From Medicago truncatula (lineage: Eukaryota; Streptophyta; Magnoliopsida; Fabales; Fabaceae), in assembly GCF_003473485.1 (NCBI RefSeq), contig NC_053043.1, positions 1,870,001 through 1,934,000 on the forward strand: DNA of 64,000 nt. The letters are read 5' to 3'. Shown piece after piece: positions 5,336-33,011 of this stretch. The notes under the pieces were generated by a model. The model was not told where the DNA came from. It ran no database searches and saw only the letters and a program-made list of their open reading frames with translations. The position numbers and the translations under genes are program-made. Positions within the stretch are counted from its first letter, which is position 1. Each line of letters opens with the position of its first letter.

Positions 5336-5754
5336 CAATCCAAATCCCTTATTTATGTGGTTCAGATATATAAATAGGGCAGAGATGAAAATAAAGCAGG
5401 CCTAATCCAACCGACAGAGTATATGAACCGAAAGTGAAGTCCAACCAACAAATTGCCCATAGAAAAATCAATCAATTCCAAATGTCTTAAAAGTCAATGA
5501 CAGAATAACTTAGCAAACCTGCTGGAATTAATTTTCCCTTGTCATTTTGTTTTGTTGAGAGGATAATTTTCCCTATCATTATTATTTAATTATTTTTAGA
5601 GTATTATATACACTCAATTCATATAAGATTTAATTTAATTACAAAATATAAGTTGGAAACTTTGCAAAGTCAAAATTGTAGACCTCACTTCATCATCATC
5701 TTCAATTCAACTTTGATCAAAATCTGAATTGAATTGAATTGTAATGATAATAAT

Positions 5755-6924
5755 ATGGGGTTGCAATTGCATCATAGGAAATTGATGGCAAAATTATGTG
5801 AAACAATATGTCACACAAATTGTTCATCAGGCAAAAATTGCACTGCTTGCTTCAATTTCTGTATAACCAGTCCAAAAATCCCTTATTACTATCCTCCATC
5901 ACCACCACCACCACAACAAGATCACCACAAAATCAACAATTACTTCATCCTCACGCTTTCTCTTCTTGCTTTTGCTTTTTTTCTTGTTTGTATTCGTGCA
6001 ATTTACGTCAGTTTCAGGTCAAGAAGAAGAAGAAGCAGCTTACGGGCACAACCATCATCAACAACTCAACAAAATGATAGGAATTTTGATGATGAAGAAC
6101 AACAGCATCAACATGGATCTGTGGTGGATCATCCTATTTGGTATATTCGAACCTTAGGTCTTCATCAATCTGTTATCAATGCAATTAGTGTTTGTAAGTA
6201 TAAGAGAGGTGAAGGTTTGATTGAAGGAACTGAATGTTCTGTATGTTTGAGTGAGTTTGAAGAAGATGAGAATCTTAGACTTTTACCTAAGTGTCATCAT
6301 GCTTTTCATTTACTTTGTATTGATACTTGGCTTAGGTCGCATACCAATTGTCCTATGTGTAGGGCTCCAATTGTTAATAACCCTACAGTTGCTAGGGTTG
6401 AGTCTTTGGAGTCTGTTATTGTTGTTGATGATTCCAGTTCAAGTTCATTGGAACATACACAAATTGATGTTTTTGATGAAAATAGTGGTGAAAGTGAAAC
6501 CAATTTAGGGTTTGAAAATAGTGCTTTTGACTCTGAATCGAGGAATTGGGAAGAAAATGATGGAGGGCAGTCCGAGGTATGTGAAAATGAAAGGCAAGTT
6601 GTCGATGTGGTTAGCATCGTTCGGCCTAGGAGATCAGTTTCTATGGACAATTTTGCTTTTGCAACTGTTCTATCAATTGAGTCTAATGGTAATGGTGATT
6701 CAAGTAAAATGAGTTTCAATGATGATGCTATTTCAAAGGTTAATGGAAACGAGAATTTGGCAACTACTTCCAAAGGCAGCAGTAGCTTTTCTTTTAGGCC
6801 AACAAGATATTTGCAGGGTGTTCCTAGTCCAATGAAGAGGTCAAGTTCGTACAATGGGAAATTTCTTCTGTCTTGGTTTAGCAGCAATCAGAAGAAGCCA
6901 AATGATATTTTCAGAAACTTATGA
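5755..6924 (+). CDS. ATL-family RING-H2 finger E3 ubiquitin ligase
   Basis: A 389-residue intronless protein of the ATL class, membrane-bound E3 ligases that move ubiquitin from an E2 to target proteins. A Cys-rich N-terminal region (about residues 14-36) precedes a proline run and one transmembrane helix (about 64-85, [20 protein letters not shown]), then a basic stretch RSRRRR. The conserved GL(D/H) stretch [11 protein letters not shown] comes before the RING. The RING-H2 spans about residues 161-202 with the order C-x2-C...C-x-H-x2-H-x2-C...C-x2-C ([23 protein letters not shown]) and the ATL-typical WL and P residues. The Ser-rich C-terminal half ends in [11 protein letters not shown] and [12 protein letters not shown] motifs, shared with ATL46/51/52/54-like proteins. 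The open frame starts at a TTG (5734); the first ATG is 5755, after a TGA at 5725. No introns, as usual for ATLs. Confidence 0.93.
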
Positions 6925-16313: not shown

Positions 16314-16495
16314 CTAAAACAATTAGAAGAAAATACACCATTGGCATGCAAATTTAGTTGAACTTTATTAATATTAATATCACATTAAGTAGTTGCATTG
16401 GGTTGTTAGGATACCTATTCCTTAGGAAAAAATCTCCATCTAAACACAAAGTAAACTTTCATATATCAATATTTGTATCTTTGAAGGTTCCAAAA

Positions 16496-19484
16496 ATGAC
16501 AACAATTAGGAAAAATAGCAATGAGCCTATCAACAACCATGTTGGTTTGAATGGTTTCCAAAATCATGTAACTAATGATAGTATGAATAATAAACCAAAT
16601 TGTAGTATCCAAAATAAAGCTTTGTTGGTTAAAAATGAGAGTGACACCCTTGGTCACCACATTGCAAAACGTTTAGTTGAAATTGGAATCAATGATGTGT
16701 TTGCTGTACCTGGAGATTTTAACCTTACACTTCTTGATTATTTAGTAGCTGAACCTGAAATTAATCTAATTGGATGTTGTAATGAGTTAAATGCTGGTTA
16801 TGCCACTGATGGATATGCTAGATGTAGAGGTGTTGGTGCATGTGTTGTTACTTTTAATGTTGGCGGACTTAGCATTCTTAATGCTATTGCTGGTTCTTAT
16901 AGTGAAGATCTTCCAATTATATGCATTGTTGGTGCCCCAAATTCCAATGATTTTGGAAGTAACAAGATTCTCCATCATACCATTGGTTTACCTGATTTTA
17001 GTCAGGAACTTCGTTGTTTTGAGCCTGTAACTTGTCATCAGGTAACTTTTCCACCAAATTCAAGGATTTCGGTTGTGTGCATTAACCCGCATCTTCAATT
17101 AAAATTAGACGATCTAGATTTCAATGTAGACTTTGATTTTTCTTTTCTAAATCTAAAATTGTGACTACACACAGTTCAGATTCTAAATTCAGATTTGACC
17201 ATGTTTAAATAAATATTAATGCTTTTCATTTTTAAGGACCAGATAGGTTTGTGTGTTTTTTCTTTCAGTTTGCCCTTCACTCTAAATTAAAGCCTAAGAT
17301 TGGGTTATTGTATTATTACTGTGATTATTTCAGGCTGTAATAAAAGATATAGATGATGCACATGAAAAGATTGATACAGCCATTGCAATAGCTCTAAGAG
17401 AAAGCAAGCCTGTATATATCAGTATAGCCTGCAACTTGCCTACCATCCCTCATTCTTCCTTCACTGACCAATCTATCCCTTTTTATTTGACTCCCAAGTA
17501 AGTCATACTCATATGTGCCTGTGATTTTCTTACCAAACTCATATATATCAATGTTTTTGTTTCTAAGTATGTATTTATCTATCTATTTTGACATTACATG
17601 TGACAACAATTTAGATGATTACCGCAATTCAAATACTTGATTACTACGTTCCCCGGATGGTTAATAATAATAATAATTAATGAGCCCACTTTCGGTTTTT
17701 TCGTCAGAGTGACTAATCAAATGAGTTTGGAAATTGCTGTGGAAGCAACAACAAAATTGTTAAACAAAGCAACCAAACCAGTAATGGTAGGTGGTCCAAT
17801 GATGCGTATATCGAAAGCTAGTGAAGCTTTCATGGAAGTAGCAGATGCATCAGGTTATGCAATAGCAGTCTTACCTTCAGCAAAAGGTATGGTATCAGAA
17901 AATCACCCTCACTTCATTGGCACCTATTGGGGTGTAGCTAGCACTTCTTTCTGTGCAGAAATTGTTGAATCTGCTGATGCATACTTATTTGCTGGTCCAT
18001 TATTCAATGATGTTATCACAATGGGACACTCACTACTAATCAAAAAGGAAAAGGCCATTACAGTACTTCCTAATAGAGTTGTTATTGGAAATGGACCTAC
18101 TTTTGGAAATATTTCAATGAAGGAATTTTTTAAAGCGCTTACGAAAAGACTCGAACGCAACGCGACTGCTATTGAGAACTACAAAAGAATTTTCATACCA
18201 GATGGTTTTCCAGTTCAATGTAATCCTAAGGAGGCTTTAAGAATCAATGTTTTGTTCAGACACATAGAAAAAATGTTGTCATGTGACAGTGCTGTGATTG
18301 CTGAATGTGGTGATGCTTGGTTTAACAGTCAGAAGTTGAAACTTCCACAAGGATGCGGGTAAGAAAATTGTTTAGAACAAATTTAAGAATATAATAAAAT
18401 TGTGACTAGTAACATTTGGCTTTATATTATTATAGGTATGAATGTCAATTGCAATATGCATCATTAGGCTGGTCAATTGGTGCAACTCTTGGATATGCAA
18501 AATCTAATCCCCAAAAGAGAGTCATTGCATGTATTGGTGATGGTTGTTTCCAGGTGATTAATTTTTACTCTTTGATTTGATCATACTTTAGTTTATGATT
18601 TGATTCATCCAAGTCTCACCGTGTAAAAAATAGAAGGCGTGAAAAGTCTTAAAATTTGGGTCATGGTCCAACTCAAGCCTACAAAATCAATTTCTAAGAT
18701 GAGGATTGTTGACCACTTATAAACATAGTTTTCGGTCATGGTTCATCTAATTTCAGACTTTTTAACACACCCTTCACGTCTAGGATTGAACATCTAAAGT
18801 CTGACCTGAGTGACCCGACAACGGTTGGGTCTAACAGATCTTGGAAAGACTCTGATACAACCTAGAATTTGGGATGAGCCTAACTAAACTCAAGAAAACT
18901 ACCTTGTGAAGTATGGATTGTCCGCCACTTATAAATACATTTTCACATCATATTTCTCAATAAAAAGAATTTATGAAAAATCTAGAAACACCATCAACAG
19001 TTTAAATGATTAACCTACTAAACTTTGAATTATCTTGCAGGTGGCTGGACAGGAAGTCTCAACAATGTTGCGATGGGGACAAAATGTCATCATCTTTCTA
19101 ATCAACAATGGTGGTTACACAACTGAGGCAGAAATTCATGATGGGCCTTACAATGTGATAAAAAATTGGAACTATGCTGGACTAATTGAAACAATAGACA
19201 ATGGTGAAGGAAAGTGTTTTACTGCCAAGGTGAGACAATCTTAAAAAACACTTGTAAACATCAATTAAGAATATCAAATTCATAAGCTTTTAACATTAAT
19301 GCTCTACTTGAAGGTGCATTGTGAGGAAGAGCTAATAGAAGCAATAAATACAACAATGGAGAGTAAAAAGAATTGTCTATGTTTCATTGAAGTGGTTATG
19401 CACAAAGATGACACAAGTAAGGAACTGCTTCAGTTGGGAAATAGGCTAGCTGCTCTCAATGGACGTTTGCCTCAACATAACTAA
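16496..19484 (+). CDS. PDC: Pyruvate decarboxylase (ThDP-dependent)
   Basis: Six exons: 16496-17041, 17334-17497, 17708-18358, 18436-18553, 19041-19229 and 19314-19484. The joined protein is 612 residues, normal for plant PDC. The enzyme turns pyruvate into acetaldehyde and CO2 in the cytosol, the first step of ethanol fermentation under low oxygen. Active-site residues known from yeast PDC are visible: Asp74 ([11 protein letters not shown]), Glu97 (CNELNAGYA), the His160-His161 pair (ILHHTIG) and Glu524 (AEIHDGPYN). The ThDP/Mg motif runs from GDG at 488-490 to Asn515-Asn516. The GDG segment reads [13 protein letters not shown], where plant PDCs usually have GDGSFQ(V/L)TAQ(D/E)VS: Ser to Cys, Thr-Ala to Ala-Gly. 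The Mg ligands Asp489 and Asn516 remain. The open frame extends upstream without a stop, but the ATG at 16496 fits the usual N-terminus. The variant motif could mark a divergent paralogue. Confidence 0.95.
18600..18960. other. Possible TRIM-like fossils in intron 4 of the PDC gene
   Basis: Two diverged segments share cttataaa..cattttc, atgaggattgt / tatggattgt and aacccaa/caactcaa-type phrases. They recall legume TRIM or solo-LTR debris. Borders cannot be set. Confidence 0.3.
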
Positions 19485-22652: not shown

Positions 22653-25600
22653 ATGTGGGAATCTGAGAGTGATTCAACTGCAAGACACAAATATGGAGAT
22701 GGAATTCTCACTTCAAACAAACATGGTGTCAAGACTGAAGGATTTCTTCAAAGAGGTCACTCTTGGTATGTTTATTAAAATAGTTTAGTATTCTTTGAAA
22801 TGATTTTAAGAATCTAGTATTTTTGAATGATGTCATTTAATATATGCTTAAAAATCTAGTATTATTTTAATGCAGGTATGTTGCAACTGATGTTCCAAGT
22901 GATTTTCTTGTTCAAATTGGTGAAGCTAACTTCCACTTGCATAAGGTACCTATCTAAATTTTGTTTCCTATAGTTTTCAATTTTTTCAAATTTCAATCTA
23001 TGATTTTATAATTTATGGAGTTAAATATATTTTTAGTCTCTACAAAATTCACGATCTTTCAAGTTTATTCCCTGCAAAAAATTGTTGCATTTTAGCCTTT
23101 ACAAAATTTTGTTGCATTTTAGCCTCTACAAAATTTTGTATGGATTAAAAACATATTTAATCATGTTTTTTATACTAAGAGATTAGGCACTAGTTAATTT
23201 GTACTACTGATGAATTATTTGTGTTCATTCTTTCCCTTTGTTGTGAAAGTATCCTCTTATATCTCGAAGTGGAAAGCTGAGTAGAATCATATACGAATCA
23301 CGCGAACCGGATGTGAATAAGATAGTTATGGATGATATCCCTGGTGGATTTGAGGCATTTGAACTTGCAGCTAAATTCTGCTATGGAATTGCTGTTGATT
23401 TAACAGCGGGGAACATTTCTGGACTAAGATGTGCTGCTGAGTATCTAGAAATGACAGAAGATTTAGAAGAAGGGAATCTTATATTCAAAACAGAAGCATT
23501 TCTTAGCTATGTTGTTTTATCATCTTGGAGAGACTCTATAGTAGTGTTGAAAAGCTGTGAGAAGCTTTCACCGTGGTCGGAGAATCTTCAAATAGTTCGA
23601 AGATGCAGCGAGTCTATAGCTTGGAAAGCTTGTGCTAATCCAAAAGGGATAAAATGGTCCTACACTGGAAGAACATCATCAAAAATTTCAAGTCCAAGAT
23701 GGAATAATAATGATATGAAAGATACAAGTCCAAGTAGGAATCAACTAGTTCCTCCTGATTGGTGGTTTGAAGATGTTTCAATCCTTCGGATTGATCACTT
23801 TGTTAGAGTCATTACTGCTATTAAGGTAAAGGGAATGAGATTTGAGTTAATTGGTGCTGCAATAATGCATTATGCAACTAAATGGCTACAAGAGTTGGTT
23901 AGTGAAACATCAATCACATTCGATGAAACGAGCAATTGCGGTAATAGTAATAGTAGTAGTAGTGGTAGCGGTAGCTGGATTAAAGGCGGCGGTGGACTTC
24001 ACATGATTGTAGCAGGTGGAACTAGAGACGAAACTTCAAGTCTTCAAGCTAAAGAACAAAGGATGATAATTGAGAGTCTTATAAGCATTATTCCTCCTCA
24101 GAAGGATACTGTTTCGTGTACTTTCCTTCTTAGGCTTCTGAGAATGGCAATTATGTTAAAGGTTGCACCTGCATTGGTTACTGAATTAGAGAAAAGGGTT
24201 GGAATGCAATTTGAGCAAGCTACACTTGCTGATCTATTAATTCCTTGTTATAATAAAGGAGAGACAATGATGTATGATGTTGATCTTGTTATGAGGCTGC
24301 TTGAGCATTTTCTTGTACAAGAAGTGACTGAAAATTCTAGTCCGAAAAGACAGTCATTTTCTGAGAAACATATGGGATTGGGATGTAACCTTAATGCTAA
24401 AGCAAGAGTAGCAAGACTTGTTGACAGTTATCTTACAGAGGTTTCAAGAGATAGAAACCTTTCATTGACAAAGTTTCAGGTACTTGCTGAAGCTTTGCCT
24501 GAATCAGCTAGAACCTGTGATGATGGACTTTATAGAGCTATTGATTCCTATCTTAAGGTAATTACTTTCTGTTTCTAGGATTTGCTTATTTACCTTTGGC
24601 TTTTCAATGGTTTTATGTCATCTAGAGTTACACATTTGGTTTGGTAAAAAAAATGGTTGATCTTATTTTAAGTAGATAAATATACATAGAAAGTTAACTC
24701 ATAGTCACATAATTTACTGCGGCCAAACGTGAATTGGTTTGCGAGTAGCAATTTGCAGTACTTTTTCAAATTGGTTCGCACTTAATATCCATTATATGGA
24801 AATGAGTAGATGAAAAGCAAAGAGTGAAATACCAATTTGCCTTTGCAATTGTAGAGATCGGACAATTTAGTTTTTGAAATTTGATGGAATTTCAAAATAA
24901 TTCTTGAAATTGGAGATTCTCGATGAAATTAATTTCTGTTGAGTAATTTTAGTAACTAAATTGACCGACTCAAAAGGAATAATGTGGTCGAGGATTCTCA
25001 ATTCAAAGACTATTTTATAGACTAAGTTGACAATATCGTATTATTTTAGGGACAACTTTGGTGATTCACTCAAATATTAGGATCAAAAGTATATTGATGA
25101 TGAATGTATGGTAGCTCAGCTTAAATTTTATTACATTAGATTTCTGCTGCTGGATTTCTTATCAGTGAAGTAAACTAACAGGCACATCCAACACTTTCTG
25201 AGCATGAAAGGAAGCGACTCTGCCGCGTAATGGATTGCCAGAAACTCTCAATTGATGCATGCATGCATGCTGCACAAAATGAAAGGCTTCCATTGAGGGT
25301 AGTTGTGCAAGTCCTATTTGCAGAACAGGTAAAGATAAGTACTGCACTATCCAACCCTTCTTTGAAAGATGTTGAATCCTTTACTCAACCAATGGTTACA
25401 AACCGAAAAACACTTCTCGAGGCGACACCACAATCATTCCAAGAAGGATGGACAACTGCTAAAAAAGATGTCAACACACTAAAGTTTGAGCTGGAGAGTG
25501 TGAAAGCTAAGTACTTAGAGCTTCAAAATGATATGGAAAATTTGCAGAAACAATTTGATAAGATGTTAAAGCAGAAGCATACTTCAGCTTGGAGTAGTGG

Positions 25601-25748
25601 ATGGAAGAAACTGAGCAAACTTACAAAGATAACAAATGTACAAAATGTACAAAATCATGATCATGATAATTCACCTCATAGCAATATTCCAGCTGCTCCA
25701 GAACAGAACAGAAAAACTACTAGAAGATGGAGAAATTCAATATCTTGA
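22653..25748 (+). CDS. BTB/POZ and NPH3 domain protein (NRL family)
   Basis: Four exons: 22653-22765, 22876-22945, 23250-24557 and 25182-25748; the spliced protein is 685 residues. NPH3/RPT2-like proteins act at the plasma membrane as phototropin or auxin-signalling partners and as presumed substrate adaptors of CUL3 E3 ligases. The BTB fold spans about residues 44-140 (VPSDFLVQIGEANFHLHK, PLISRSGKLSRIIYE, AAKFCYG, AAEYLEMTED). The NPH3 domain begins at DWWFEDVSILRIDHFVRVI (about 230) and ends near VQVLFAEQVKI (about 548). A predicted coiled coil follows (about 590-630, LKFELESVKAKYLELQ), then a basic Ser-rich tail. Exon 3 has an NSNSSSSGSGS low-complexity loop near residue 292. The domain order is complete and no damage is seen. 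The exact NRL subgroup was not determined. Confidence 0.93.
23019..23165. mobile_element. MITE in intron 2 of the NPH3-like gene
   Basis: Left gttaaatatatttttagtct and right gattaaaaacatatttaa are inverted, with repeated ttttagcctctacaaaattt phrases inside. This matches a common legume MITE type whose ends read TTAAATATGTTTTTAGTCC; another possible end lies near 14690. The target duplication was not resolved. Confidence 0.5.
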
Positions 25749-30232: not shown

Positions 30233-31267
30233 TTAGTGATATTTCACCCCAAGCATGCCGGTTTGGGACATCAAAGATTTTAAGTAATCAATAGTTTCAT
30301 CGATGACTAGCAGTGGATGCTTTCCTTTTGCTCCAGGAGTTAACTTCTCGAGAATTCTCAATGTTTCACGGATTTTATCCTTTTTCAATTGAATATCACC
30401 AACTGCTGCTGAATTATCTTCAGTTTGTCTGGCAAAATACATTTGGCCATCAGAATGCTTTGATTCGGCATCCCTGACACATTCACACGGTTCATTTAGT
30501 CTTACTGAACTAGCACTGTCTACGAGTGGTGATAATTTTGTGTACCCACCATCAATCAACTTGTGCCTTTTGTTTGGCCAATCAGAGCTAGCAGTATCCT
30601 CCTCTGTGTCCTCGATTTGTTCTTGTATCAAATAAGTCCTTTCATCAGCCAATGGAGAATGGCCTGTACTTGTTACCTCATCATCGTCATCAGAGTCATA
30701 ATCATCAGAACACAGCAATGCATTGATTTCTTCTGTGTCTTCATGCATTTCACTTTCTTCGTTAACAACATGATCCTGCTCTGACTCTTCAGGCAAACTG
30801 TATTTCGGTAAATGTTTTTGACCGAAATTAGTTGCATGTCTTTCCTGATTTACATCATAAGCTTGAGTGAATTGTGTGGTAGTAACAATTGGACTCTGAA
30901 CAAGTGGGAAGACAGGGCTATAAAACAACCTTGTCTTCTTATCAGACCGGTCAAAGATAATAAATTTCTTCTGCAAAAATGCAGGATTCGCATTTTGCAT
31001 AGCCATGTTATTTGCTTTCAAACATGGTTCTGTTTTGGGATCCTGAAGGAACCCTTGCTCTTCATTGGTCTGATCAGTCAGCAGGCTTGGGGTAGCAGGA
31101 GCTGTGAATCCTGGAAATGCACCGACATCGGGAAAAGTGCATGTACTAGGAGTAGGATATGCCGAATAACCACACAAACTGGGATCCGACATGCGGGCGC
31201 CATTGGAATAAAGTGACGGCCAGGCCACAGGCTGTGGGCAAGGCCAAGACTCGTGGGCCTTAACCAT
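30233..31267 (-). CDS. SAC51-type bHLH transcription factor (bHLH143/145-like)
   Basis: A 344-residue protein encoded in one exon, close in length to Arabidopsis SAC51. SAC51-family HLH proteins act downstream of thermospermine in vascular (xylem) development. The N-terminus (MVKAHESWPCPQP) and the YSAYPTPSTCTFPDVGAFPG segment are family-like. The middle is very acidic (SDDYDSDDDDEVTSTGHSPL), followed by the NKRHKLIDGG motif. The HLH lies at the C-terminus (about 291-340: KKDKIRETLRILEKLTPGAK, KHPLLVIDETIDYLKSL). The basic region lacks the E-box-contacting His-Glu-Arg pattern, as in this subfamily, so it may act mainly by dimerisation. The open frame runs upstream to a TTG, but the first ATG is 31267. 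The leader contains a conserved uORF (31431-31792) and two smaller upstream ORFs, which implies translational control. Confidence 0.92.
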   Translation of the reverse strand: MVKAHESWPCPQPVAWPSLYSNGARMSDPSLCGYSAYPTPSTCTFPDVGAFPGFTAPATPSLLTDQTNEEQGFLQDPKTEPCLKANNMAMQNANPAFLQKKFIIFDRSDKKTRLFYSPVFPLVQSPIVTTTQFTQAYDVNQERHATNFGQKHLPKYSLPEESEQDHVVNEESEMHEDTEEINALLCSDDYDSDDDDEVTSTGHSPLADERTYLIQEQIEDTEEDTASSDWPNKRHKLIDGGYTKLSPLVDSASSVRLNEPCECVRDAESKHSDGQMYFARQTEDNSAAVGDIQLKKDKIRETLRILEKLTPGAKGKHPLLVIDETIDYLKSLMSQTGMLGVKYH

Positions 31268-31430
31268 CCAACCAGAAAGAAAAAAAGATCCTAAAGAACA
31301 ATATATCAATCGCTCAACGCTTTGGTTCTTTGATATGGGATCTTCAATAACTTGCTTCTTCTCTTCGTAACAAATGACAGAAAAAGAAAACTACAAATTC
31401 CAGCTTTAAGAAAAAATGAATGCAGAACAG

Positions 31431-31792
31431 TTAAGTGATAGGCTTAAGCAATTGACGGAAGTACTCAGCCTGCAAAGAGTTCGAAGATAACATTCATCAT
31501 ACATGAGCTCATAAAATTATCACACTGACACAACTGTTAACAAACAACCTTTAGAAAAATTATACATGAATAAAAACTTTCATTAAACAGCTACCTTAAT
31601 AATCATGTCAAGAATTATTAAAAAAAACAAAAATTGGAAAATACCAAGTATTAGCAACACATTACTAACCTGACAATCTTGCAAAGGTTGAAAGCATGCT
31701 ATCACTCTAACAATTATTGTTGGTTCACCTTCAATGCCATTACAATGTTTTAATGCCCGAAATCCTTTTTGGCTTGCTGCTCGGCCTACCAT
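31431..31792 (-). CDS. Conserved peptide uORF of the SAC51 family (intron-split)
   Basis: A 53-residue upstream ORF in the leader of the bHLH gene, in two exons: 31670-31792 (41 codons) and 31431-31469 (12 codons plus stop). They join across a 200-bp GT-AG intron. The peptide includes RALKHCNGIEGEPTIIVRV and IACFQPLQDCQ, with AEYFRQLLKPIT after the junction. This closely resembles the conserved 53-residue uORF peptide of Arabidopsis SAC51, which represses the main ORF and whose repression thermospermine relieves. The stop is 163 bases upstream of the main ATG, with no ATG between. Unspliced RNA would read into the intron and change the last 12 residues, so splicing decides whether the functional peptide is made. 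Confidence 0.92.
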
Positions 31793-31859
31793 AACTTTTG
31801 ATTCTTACCAAACTACTCGGTTAATCTAAACGCGATGGACACACCACGAGAATGATGAT

Positions 31860-31937
31860 CTAGAGAATAACTTTACAGTATAAATTCAAGCGTACAACTT
31901 GGCGGAATACATCAACTAAAAGACCCAACCAACGCAT
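31860..31937 (-). CDS. Upstream uORF in the SAC51-like leader (25 codons)
   Basis: If leader exon 2 spans 32003-31670 (acceptor tttcag just before 32003), this short ORF beginning MRWLGLLVDVF lies in the mature leader ahead of the conserved uORF. A second overlapping ORF of 8 codons (MYSAKLYA) sits at 31886-31912. SAC51 leaders in Arabidopsis also contain several uORFs. Peptide sequence conservation is not claimed here; they may only lower ribosome flow. Confidence 0.5.
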   Translation of the reverse strand: MRWLGLLVDVFRQVVRLNLYCKVIL

Positions 31938-32437
31938 GCTGATTTGTTCTTGTGTTCGTTGAGATGTCCAGAATCACTTATGTTATGCCCTCCACAAGTT
32001 TTTCTGAAACAAGATTAAATAATCCAAATGAAAATTCATTTCTGCAGATAATAATGATAAAGAAAGTGTAATGCTAATAGAAACCAAAATCCCTCAAAAT
32101 TAAAGTAAAACATTTTGAATAAGAAAATACTAATAACTAATGTAACAAACAAGGCTTTAAATCCGCAATTGCGTAAAATTGCAGTCAAATACAACTGCAG
32201 CCACAATTGTGGTCGCGGAAACAAAAAACATCGCAGCTGCAGACCAAATTTTAAAACCTTGGTGACAATACAAAAACTCATTGCAGCATCCAACACAACC
32301 ATTCATTTTTTTTTTCTTCCAAAAAAACCTGCAGAAGAAGCCTCACCTTTTTTCTAATTTTCTTATTCAAATTGAAGAGAAGCTCATTTTGGCTTAACAA
32401 GGGCCACTGTAAGATATCTAAAGAGAAAGCTCACATA

Positions 32438-32672
32438 GGGCCTGTTTGGATTGGCATATTTGAGTTTATCATAAGCACTTGTAGACTGTTTGAGAAAACT
32501 TATGACATGTACATAAGTTATTTTCAGCTTATTTTCACAAGTTCTCCAAGATAGCTTCCGAAAACAGCTTATAGCTTTTACGAAATAATTTAACTTTTGC
32601 TATCAAAATAGCTTATATATAAGCACTTATCAAGCTATAAGCTGCAGATTAAGCAGTTTATCCAAACAGGAC
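32438..32672. mobile_element. MITE in leader intron 1 of the SAC51-like gene
   Basis: It starts gggcctgtttggattggc and ends tttatccaaacaggac, imperfect inverted repeats. Internal ataagc/gcttat repeats match the family at 9012 and 38998. The flanks share ata, which may be a 3-bp duplication. It lies between the inferred leader exon 1 donor (32899) and exon 2 acceptor (32004). Confidence 0.5.
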
Positions 32673-33003
32673 ATAAACCCAGTAAGATTATTGCTCAGTT
32701 TCTTAATTTAGTTCCTGAAATTCCTAATATTTTGTAATTAATATTAAATTAATCTAGAATTGTGAAATTCCATGGAAACCAAACAATAAAAAAGATAAAA
32801 GAATAAAAATAATAACATGAAATCATCTTCTATTACCTTGCAATTTGAAAAATTGAGAAAGCGAAAAAAAAAAGATGAATGAGTTATGAAAAGACTTACA
32901 GATGGAATGGAAAGAGAGAGAGTGAGGAAGTGCGCGTGCTTGCGAGAAGAATGAATAATTTAGAAAATGTCCAAAAGAGGTACTGCTAATTCAGCATGCT
33001 CAC

Positions 33004-33011
33004 ATTATATA
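33004..33011 (-). promoter_or_regulatory. Probable TATA box of the SAC51-like gene
   Basis: TATATAAT on the minus strand sits about 100 bases upstream of a leader exon that ends with a consensus donor (T|GTAAGTC, junction at 32900/32899). The GA-rich stretch 32905-32935 is then leader exon 1. Confidence 0.5.

What the first reader, a model, noticed from the sequence alone, without database searches (positions are those of the whole stretch)
31431..31792. Intron-split conserved uORF in a SAC51-like leader
The 53-codon uORF has 41 codons in one exon and 12 in the next, and the two parts join exactly to give a SAC51-type peptide. The intron lies inside the regulatory peptide, so keeping or splicing it would switch the C-terminal AEYFRQLLKPIT. 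In Arabidopsis the uORF's peptide sequence matters for thermospermine control (established). That splicing adds a second layer of control here is inference.
Basis: partly seen in the sequence, partly recalled or inferred. Interest (0 to 1): 0.8.

Follow-up and report, generated by a model that had tools for sequence, protein, structure and literature searches.

The report
Known plant uORF split by intron
A plant gene of the SAC51 family carries a known type of small regulatory reading frame in its leader, and an ordinary-looking intron, at a position shared by two related genes, cuts that frame just before its most conserved end; nothing found here shows that splicing adds a second control.

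Summary
On the minus strand a SAC51-type bHLH gene (main ORF 31267-30233) has a 53-codon uORF: 41 codons (31792-31670), a 200-nt GT-AG phase-0 intron (31669-31470), then 12 codons plus stop (31469-31431). Two related genes in the same genome, one close enough to pass the family cut-off and one divergent, have an intron at the same place (3 of 3), and the joined frame is under protein-level selection. It is the known conserved-peptide uORF HG15.3; the window also holds its known partner HG15.1. The splice-switch interpretation is not supported. The tails made by retention are unrelated in the three genes. Retention would add nine upstream AUGs, one of which remakes the conserved end (MLSSNSLQ-AEYFRQLLKPIT). 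In Arabidopsis a cDNA leader responds to thermospermine as a genomic one does (PMC6504692). Thermospermine control of this gene is uncertain: the uORF lacks the internal in-frame Met, and the SACL2-type leaders tested without one, soybean's included, did not respond. Verdict: a real, ordinary new member of a known kind. The shared intron position is a small, testable detail.

The parts
31670..31792 (-). 5' part of the conserved uORF (HG15.3 type), 41 codons, end of leader exon 2
   Evidence: dN 0.227 and dS 1.2 against the C5 gene
31470..31669 (-). 200-nt GT-AG phase-0 intron inside the uORF; GC 0.27, T 0.475; holds 9 ATGs
   Evidence: same position in the C5 (101 nt) and C4 (466 nt) genes
31431..31469 (-). 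3' part of the uORF: 12 codons AEYFRQLLKPIT plus stop, start of exon 3
31470..31493 (-). intronic ATG in frame with exon 3; only if the intron is retained it would encode MLSSNSLQ-AEYFRQLLKPIT (20 aa)
   Evidence: 23% of shuffled versions of this intron have such an ATG, so it may be chance
31860..31937 (-). 25-codon uORF MRWLGLLVDVFRQVVRLNLYCKVIL, fitting the description of HG15.1; ends 190 nt before the intron
   Evidence: C5: MRWLFSLSIDVYRKVISLNLYCKVIL, dN 0.25, dS 1.46; HG15.1 described in PMC2075485
31886..31912 (-). 8-codon uORF MYSAKLYA nested in another frame of the previous one; C5 has MYTEKLFL at the corresponding place
   Evidence: possibly HG15.2 (not verified)
31670..32003 (-). 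leader exon 2 (334 nt), preceded by acceptor TTTCAG
   Evidence: splice sites inferred from sequence
32004..32899 (-). leader intron 1 (896 nt), TCT|GTAAGT ... TTTCAG
   Evidence: inferred
31268..31430 (-). 163-nt spacer between the uORF stop and the main ATG; no convincing third leader intron
   Evidence: C5 has a 116-nt intron-like stretch here (inferred), and Arabidopsis SAC51 has three leader introns
30233..31267 (-). main ORF, 344 aa, SAC51-family bHLH protein
   Evidence: PF23173, 56.3 bits, cut-off 28.5

Best explanation
This is the leader of a SAC51-family bHLH gene, most likely of Medicago truncatula. It carries the known conserved-peptide uORF HG15.3 with its partner HG15.1. An ordinary intron, probably spliced constitutively, sits at an old, shared position between codons 41 and 42. 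The spliced uORF is translated, and its nascent peptide, above all the C-terminal CQAEYFRQLLKP(I/V)T, hinders ribosomes from reaching the main ORF. In Arabidopsis relatives thermospermine relieves this. Shown here: the structure, the shared intron position in three genes, and protein-level selection on the joined frame. From published work on Arabidopsis: repression by the uORF and relief by thermospermine. Inferred: that the same happens in this gene, that the C-terminal block is the acting part, and that the intron is simply removed.
For: Main ORF is PF23173. Exact junction and 53 aa, the same length as Arabidopsis SAC51 uORF4 (53 aa, PMC4308196). Three copies of the 12-codon exon in the genome, each upstream of a PF23173 match, each with the intron at the same phase-0 position. 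Joined frame dN/dS about 0.11. HG15 is described with HG15.1 (18-27 aa), HG15.2 and HG15.3 (43-54 aa), and a Medicago EST (CX528608) is listed for it (PMC2075485). Premature-stop edits in the Arabidopsis SACL2 uORF, of which d1 was tested, raise reporter activity (PMC12436307). A cDNA leader confers the response as a genomic one does. The intron is T-rich with GT-AG ends.
Against: No transcript, ribosome profiling or reporter data for this gene were available. The C4 gene is a weak witness: its uORF is 38 aa with a different N-terminal half, its PF23173 match is 23.9 bits, below the cut-off of 28.5, the window protein used as query did not find it in the genome, and its 262-aa ORF is only 22% identical to the window protein over 247 positions. 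A search with the whole 53-aa peptide found 2 places, not 3. Of the 12 PF23173 places listed, 3 have this exon within 2 mismatches; the other 9 were not examined. The donors GTTAGT (window) and GTTTGT (C5) are not the textbook GTAAGT (textbook form recalled).
Confidence: 0.85

Rival explanations
1. One reading: regulated retention of the intron replaces the C-terminus of the uORF peptide and so turns repression of the main ORF on or off.
For: Retention would give a 69-codon uORF without AEYFRQLLKPIT at its end. Donors in the window and C5 genes have T at +3. A 5' leader intron retention that adds a repressive uORF is known for PIF3 (PMC11062462, passage).
Against: Retained tails are unrelated among the three genes (139, 54 and 329 of 500 shuffles score at least as high). 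Retention adds 9 AUGs, and one remakes the conserved end, so a clean derepression is not expected. The Arabidopsis cDNA leader keeps the thermospermine response. Searches pairing SAC51, SACL3 or At5g64340 with splicing or retention listed few papers; in the passages I read of the plant ones none described retention of this intron.
Confidence: 0.08
2. The intron matters through the exon junction complex and nonsense-mediated decay. It lies inside HG15.3 but 190 nt after the HG15.1 stop. Ribosomes that end at HG15.1 leave a downstream junction in place and mark the mRNA for decay; ribosomes that read HG15.3 strip it. Absence of the third leader intron in the window gene would remove the downstream junction proposed to trigger decay in Arabidopsis.
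For: Geometry. SAC51 is an NMD target and its downstream junction was proposed as the trigger (PMC4308196; PMC3284524). C5 has an intron-like 116 nt starting 127 nt after the uORF stop, while the window gene has only weak candidates.
Against: All splice sites are inferred. Candidate introns in the window spacer, the best a 104-nt TTT|GTAGTT...TTTAG, cannot be excluded. upf1 and upf3 mutations did not suppress acl5.
Confidence: 0.15
3. The two exons are not a uORF but the N-terminus of a longer main protein, or a chance frame.
For: Spurious uORFs of this kind are known (PMC7106846, passage).
Against: The stop after KP(I/V)T is present in all three genes. After splicing the uORF is in a different frame from the main ORF. 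dN/dS supports the uORF frame.
Confidence: 0.01

Closest known systems
HG15.3 conserved-peptide uORF of Arabidopsis SAC51 (uORF4) and SACL1-3
   Same: 53 aa in SAC51, upstream of a SAC51-type bHLH ORF, with other conserved uORFs in the same leader; SAC51 uORFs lie in exons 2 and 3 after a first exon without coding sequence
   Different: No internal in-frame Met (uORF6), which SAC51 and SACL1 have. The third leader intron seems absent. Whether the Arabidopsis uORF4 is cut at the same codon could not be read from the passages and sections seen (figures are not held)
Soybean GmSACL2 leader
   Same: Legume SAC51-family leader; SACL2 homologues tested have the conserved uORF without an additional uORF inside it
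   Different: GmSACL2 showed no thermospermine response in Arabidopsis (PMC6504692); the window gene is untested and its SACL subgroup is an inference
PIF3 5' leader intron retention
   Same: Intron in a leader that could add or change uORFs
   Different: There retention is reported and regulated (PMC11062462); here there is no evidence of retention
HG8 uORF with conserved introns
   Same: A conserved uORF cut by introns at conserved positions (PMC2075485)
   Different: HG8 is a CHCH-domain peptide whose main ORF seems absent in several lineages

Membership tests
HG15.3 conserved-peptide uORF | lies in the leader of a SAC51-family bHLH gene | tested here: met
   PF23173 56.3 bits, cut-off 28.5; uORF stop 163 nt before the main ATG
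HG15.3 conserved-peptide uORF | length 43-54 aa | tested here: met
   53 aa in the window and C5 genes; C4 is 38 aa and falls outside; range from PMC2075485
HG15.3 conserved-peptide uORF | nearly invariant C-terminal block and fixed stop | tested here: met
   AEYFRQLLKP(I/V)T then stop in 3 of 3 genes; equating it with the '13/14 completely conserved' entry of PMC2075485 is my inference
HG15.3 conserved-peptide uORF | purifying selection on the peptide | tested here: met
   dN 0.18, dS 1.58 in frame; one pair of genes only, and dS near saturation
HG15.3 conserved-peptide uORF | companion uORF HG15.1 | tested here: met
   25 aa, C5 26 aa, dN 0.25, dS 1.46; identified by length and place, the published alignment was not seen
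HG15.3 conserved-peptide uORF | peptide-dependent repression of the main ORF | not testable with these tools
   needs reporter or ribosome profiling
thermospermine-responsive SAC51 leader | internal in-frame AUG (uORF6) seen in the responsive leaders | tested here: not met
   no internal in-frame Met in the window uORF; in SAC51 itself at least one of uORF4 and uORF6 is required, so a response is not excluded
thermospermine-responsive SAC51 leader | reporter output rises with thermospermine | not testable with these tools
   experiment needed
leader controlled by intron retention | retained product conserved between homologues | tested here: not met
   tails unrelated
leader controlled by intron retention | retention observed and regulated | not testable with these tools
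   no RNA data

The most novel reading that the evidence does not exclude
The intron position is kept because the arrest peptide is assembled only by splicing. Only mRNAs that have passed the spliceosome carry the full repressive peptide and an exon junction placed so that HG15.3 translation clears it while HG15.1 termination does not. Splicing, HG15.1, HG15.3 and decay would then form one switch, and genes without the third leader intron, as this one seems to be, would have shifted from decay-coupled to purely translational repression.
Probability: 0.1. Interest if true: 0.6.

Novelty: new member of a known kind. Interest (0 to 1): 0.25.

Why it matters
It places a legume gene in the family of thermospermine-linked uORF leaders and shows that the intron before the conserved 12-residue end is shared by the three genes found with that end in this genome. 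Two practical points follow. uORF searches on unspliced genomic DNA will miss the conserved end. And the three genes differ in features tied to thermospermine response and decay (internal Met, third leader intron), so they can serve as a natural comparison.

Tried and rejected
Rejected: the uORF as N-terminus of the main protein (frame and shared stop). Rejected as evidence: the intronic ATG that remakes the conserved end, since 23% of shuffled window introns have one. C4 also has one (MQ) and C5 has none; the C4 one falls inside the 12 bases held fixed in the shuffle, so it was not tested. Weak lead: positions -25 to -6 of the intron are similar between the window and C5 genes (13 of 20, shared TTCGAA; 40 of 20000 shuffles reach it). 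C4 does not share it (5 and 8 of 20), and the shuffle ignores the pyrimidine tract, so I draw no conclusion.

Led nowhere: the 12-codon exon pattern in prokaryote genomes and in viral contigs, 0 matches each, as expected for a plant gene. Imai 2006 and Yamamoto and Takahashi 2017 are not held. A phrase search for uORFs interrupted by an intron gave 0 papers.

What I saw of papers: PMC6504692 passages and sections 14, 15, 17; PMC4308196 passages and the Discussion; PMC11913374 passages and the Results and discussion; passages only of PMC2075485, PMC3426882, PMC3284524, PMC7106846, PMC11020214, PMC12436307, PMC9305500, PMC7701098, PMC11062462, PMC6524035. PMC8463542, a leukaemia paper listed, was seen in the listing only. 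EST CX528608 is cited from the paper; its sequence was not seen.

Full report
What is there. On the minus strand of the window lies a gene whose 344-aa main ORF (31267-30233) matches the Pfam family bHLH_SAC51 (56.3 bits, cut-off 28.5). Its leader, read from splice-like signals, has a TATA-like stretch at 33011, a short first exon ending at 32900, an 896-nt first intron, a second exon 32003-31670, a 200-nt second intron 31669-31470, and a third exon that runs from 31469 into the main ORF. The 53-codon uORF starts at 31792, crosses the second intron between codons 41 and 42 in phase 0, and stops at 31431.

Is it more than chance. The window lies in a 430-Mb genome (contig C2). A degenerate pattern for ten residues of the 12-codon exon finds 3 places in the genome with up to 2 mismatches, all with none, and the pattern read backwards finds 0. 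The three places (C2, C5, C4) lie about 0.9 to 1.2 kb upstream of PF23173 matches; that family search listed 12 places at E up to 1, 7 of them over its cut-off, the C4 one being below it. In all three genes the upstream exon ends in CAG|GT, the 12-codon exon follows an AG acceptor, and the phase is 0. Between the window and C5 genes the joined frame has 23.2 synonymous and 19.8 non-synonymous differences (dS 1.58, dN 0.18), the other two frames have dN above dS, and in the 12-codon exon 7 of 8 differences are at third positions. So the spliced peptide is what selection sees.

The third gene is a weaker witness. The window protein as query found C5 but not C4 in the genome, and the whole 53-aa peptide found 2 places, C2 and C5. 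The C4 uORF keeps only a few residues before the junction and the last 12, and is 38 aa long. Its downstream ORF (262 aa from 46360578) is 22% identical to the window protein over 247 positions, in a comparison against a handful of sequences. I read it as a divergent family member.

Known identity. Hayden and Jorgensen described homology group 15 of conserved-peptide uORFs in SAC51 (bHLH142) and its relatives, with conserved uORFs 15.1 (18-27 aa), 15.2 and 15.3 (43-54 aa), traced it as far as a fern, and listed a Medicago EST for it (PMC2075485; passages read, figures not held). Arabidopsis SAC51 has four exons, three leader introns and uORFs of 20, 16, 48, 53 and 6 aa (PMC4308196), and its uORFs lie in exons 2 and 3 (PMC6504692). 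The window leader fits: a 25-aa HG15.1-type uORF at 31937-31860 (C5: 26 aa, dN 0.25, dS 1.46), a nested 8-codon uORF at 31912 that C5 shares in place and length, and the 53-aa uORF. The sources disagree on uORF1: PMC4308196 calls it highly conserved, PMC6504692 lists it among those not conserved; the pair here sides with conservation.

Does splicing switch it. The evidence is against the simple form. First, the tails made by retention, 28, 44 and 19 aa, are not clearly more alike than shuffled sequences (139, 54 and 329 of 500 shuffles reach the observed score), while the spliced tails are 11 or 12 of 12 identical. Second, retention raises the AUGs between the start of exon 2 and the main ATG from 5 to 14, so more repression, not release, would be expected. 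Third, one of these, at 31493, is in frame with exon 3 and would make MLSSNSLQAEYFRQLLKPIT, so the conserved end would still be encoded, detached from the first 41 codons; 23% of shuffled introns do this, so it is a caution and not a claim. Fourth, in Arabidopsis a genomic and a cDNA fragment of the SAC51 leader both confer the thermospermine response (PMC6504692). Searches pairing SAC51, SACL3 or At5g64340 with splicing or intron retention listed few papers, and the passages I read of the plant ones did not describe retention of this intron; subscription papers are mostly not covered.

Thermospermine. In SAC51 the response survives loss of any single uORF start and is lost when uORF4 and the internal in-frame uORF6 are both removed. 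The responsive leaders from other species contained counterparts of both; the SACL2-type leaders tested, soybean's included, had no additional uORF inside the conserved one and did not respond, and BoSACL3 did not respond either. The window and C5 uORFs have no internal in-frame Met; the C4 uORF has two. So repression by the uORF is likely here, and a premature-stop edit in the Arabidopsis SACL2 uORF does raise output (PMC12436307), but thermospermine relief of this gene should not be assumed. On the other side, the same 2025 paper concludes that all members of the Arabidopsis family take part in the thermospermine response.

A difference worth testing. The C5 gene has an intron-like stretch 127 nt after the uORF stop (116 nt, AAG|GTATAT ... 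TGTAG); the window gene has only weak candidates in its 163-nt spacer. A downstream exon junction was proposed as the trigger of decay of Arabidopsis SAC51 mRNA. If the window gene lacks that intron, the HG15.3 stop has no junction after it before the main ORF, while the HG15.1 stop still has one 190 nt away. This is inference from sequence.

Limits. No RNA data and no plant collection beyond the window's own genome were available. The subgroup of the window gene within the SAC51 family is inferred from its uORF only. One pair of genes carries the selection test.

Noticed in passing
window 32436-32675: A 240-bp element with imperfect terminal inverted repeats (GGGCCTGTTTGGAT / ATCCAAACAGGAC) sits in leader intron 1; the genome search gave 45 matches at E up to 0.001, with 1979 first-look candidates of which 40 were scored, so it looks like a high-copy MITE.
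   Followed up: partly
window 32150-32262: A second stretch in leader intron 1 looked like a palindromic MITE-like element by eye; the inverted-repeat search of 32000-32905 did not list it.
   Followed up: no
L020 (C4 46361430-46360848): The C4 gene keeps the intron position and the 12-residue end, but its uORF N-terminal half differs from the other two and has two internal in-frame ATGs; its main ORF is a distant relative.
   Followed up: partly
window 31697-31465: A 10-codon frame nested in the conserved uORF (MLSTFARLSG; C5: MLSNSQRMPG) has its UGA stop just after the splice junction, in both genes; possibly a by-product of the conserved peptide.
   Followed up: no
window 5728-6921, 16358-18359, 23247-25745: Neighbouring plus-strand genes: a RING-finger protein, a thiamine-pyrophosphate enzyme (N-terminal and central domains in two open frames; pyruvate decarboxylase-like is my recall), and an NPH3-family protein.
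   Followed up: no
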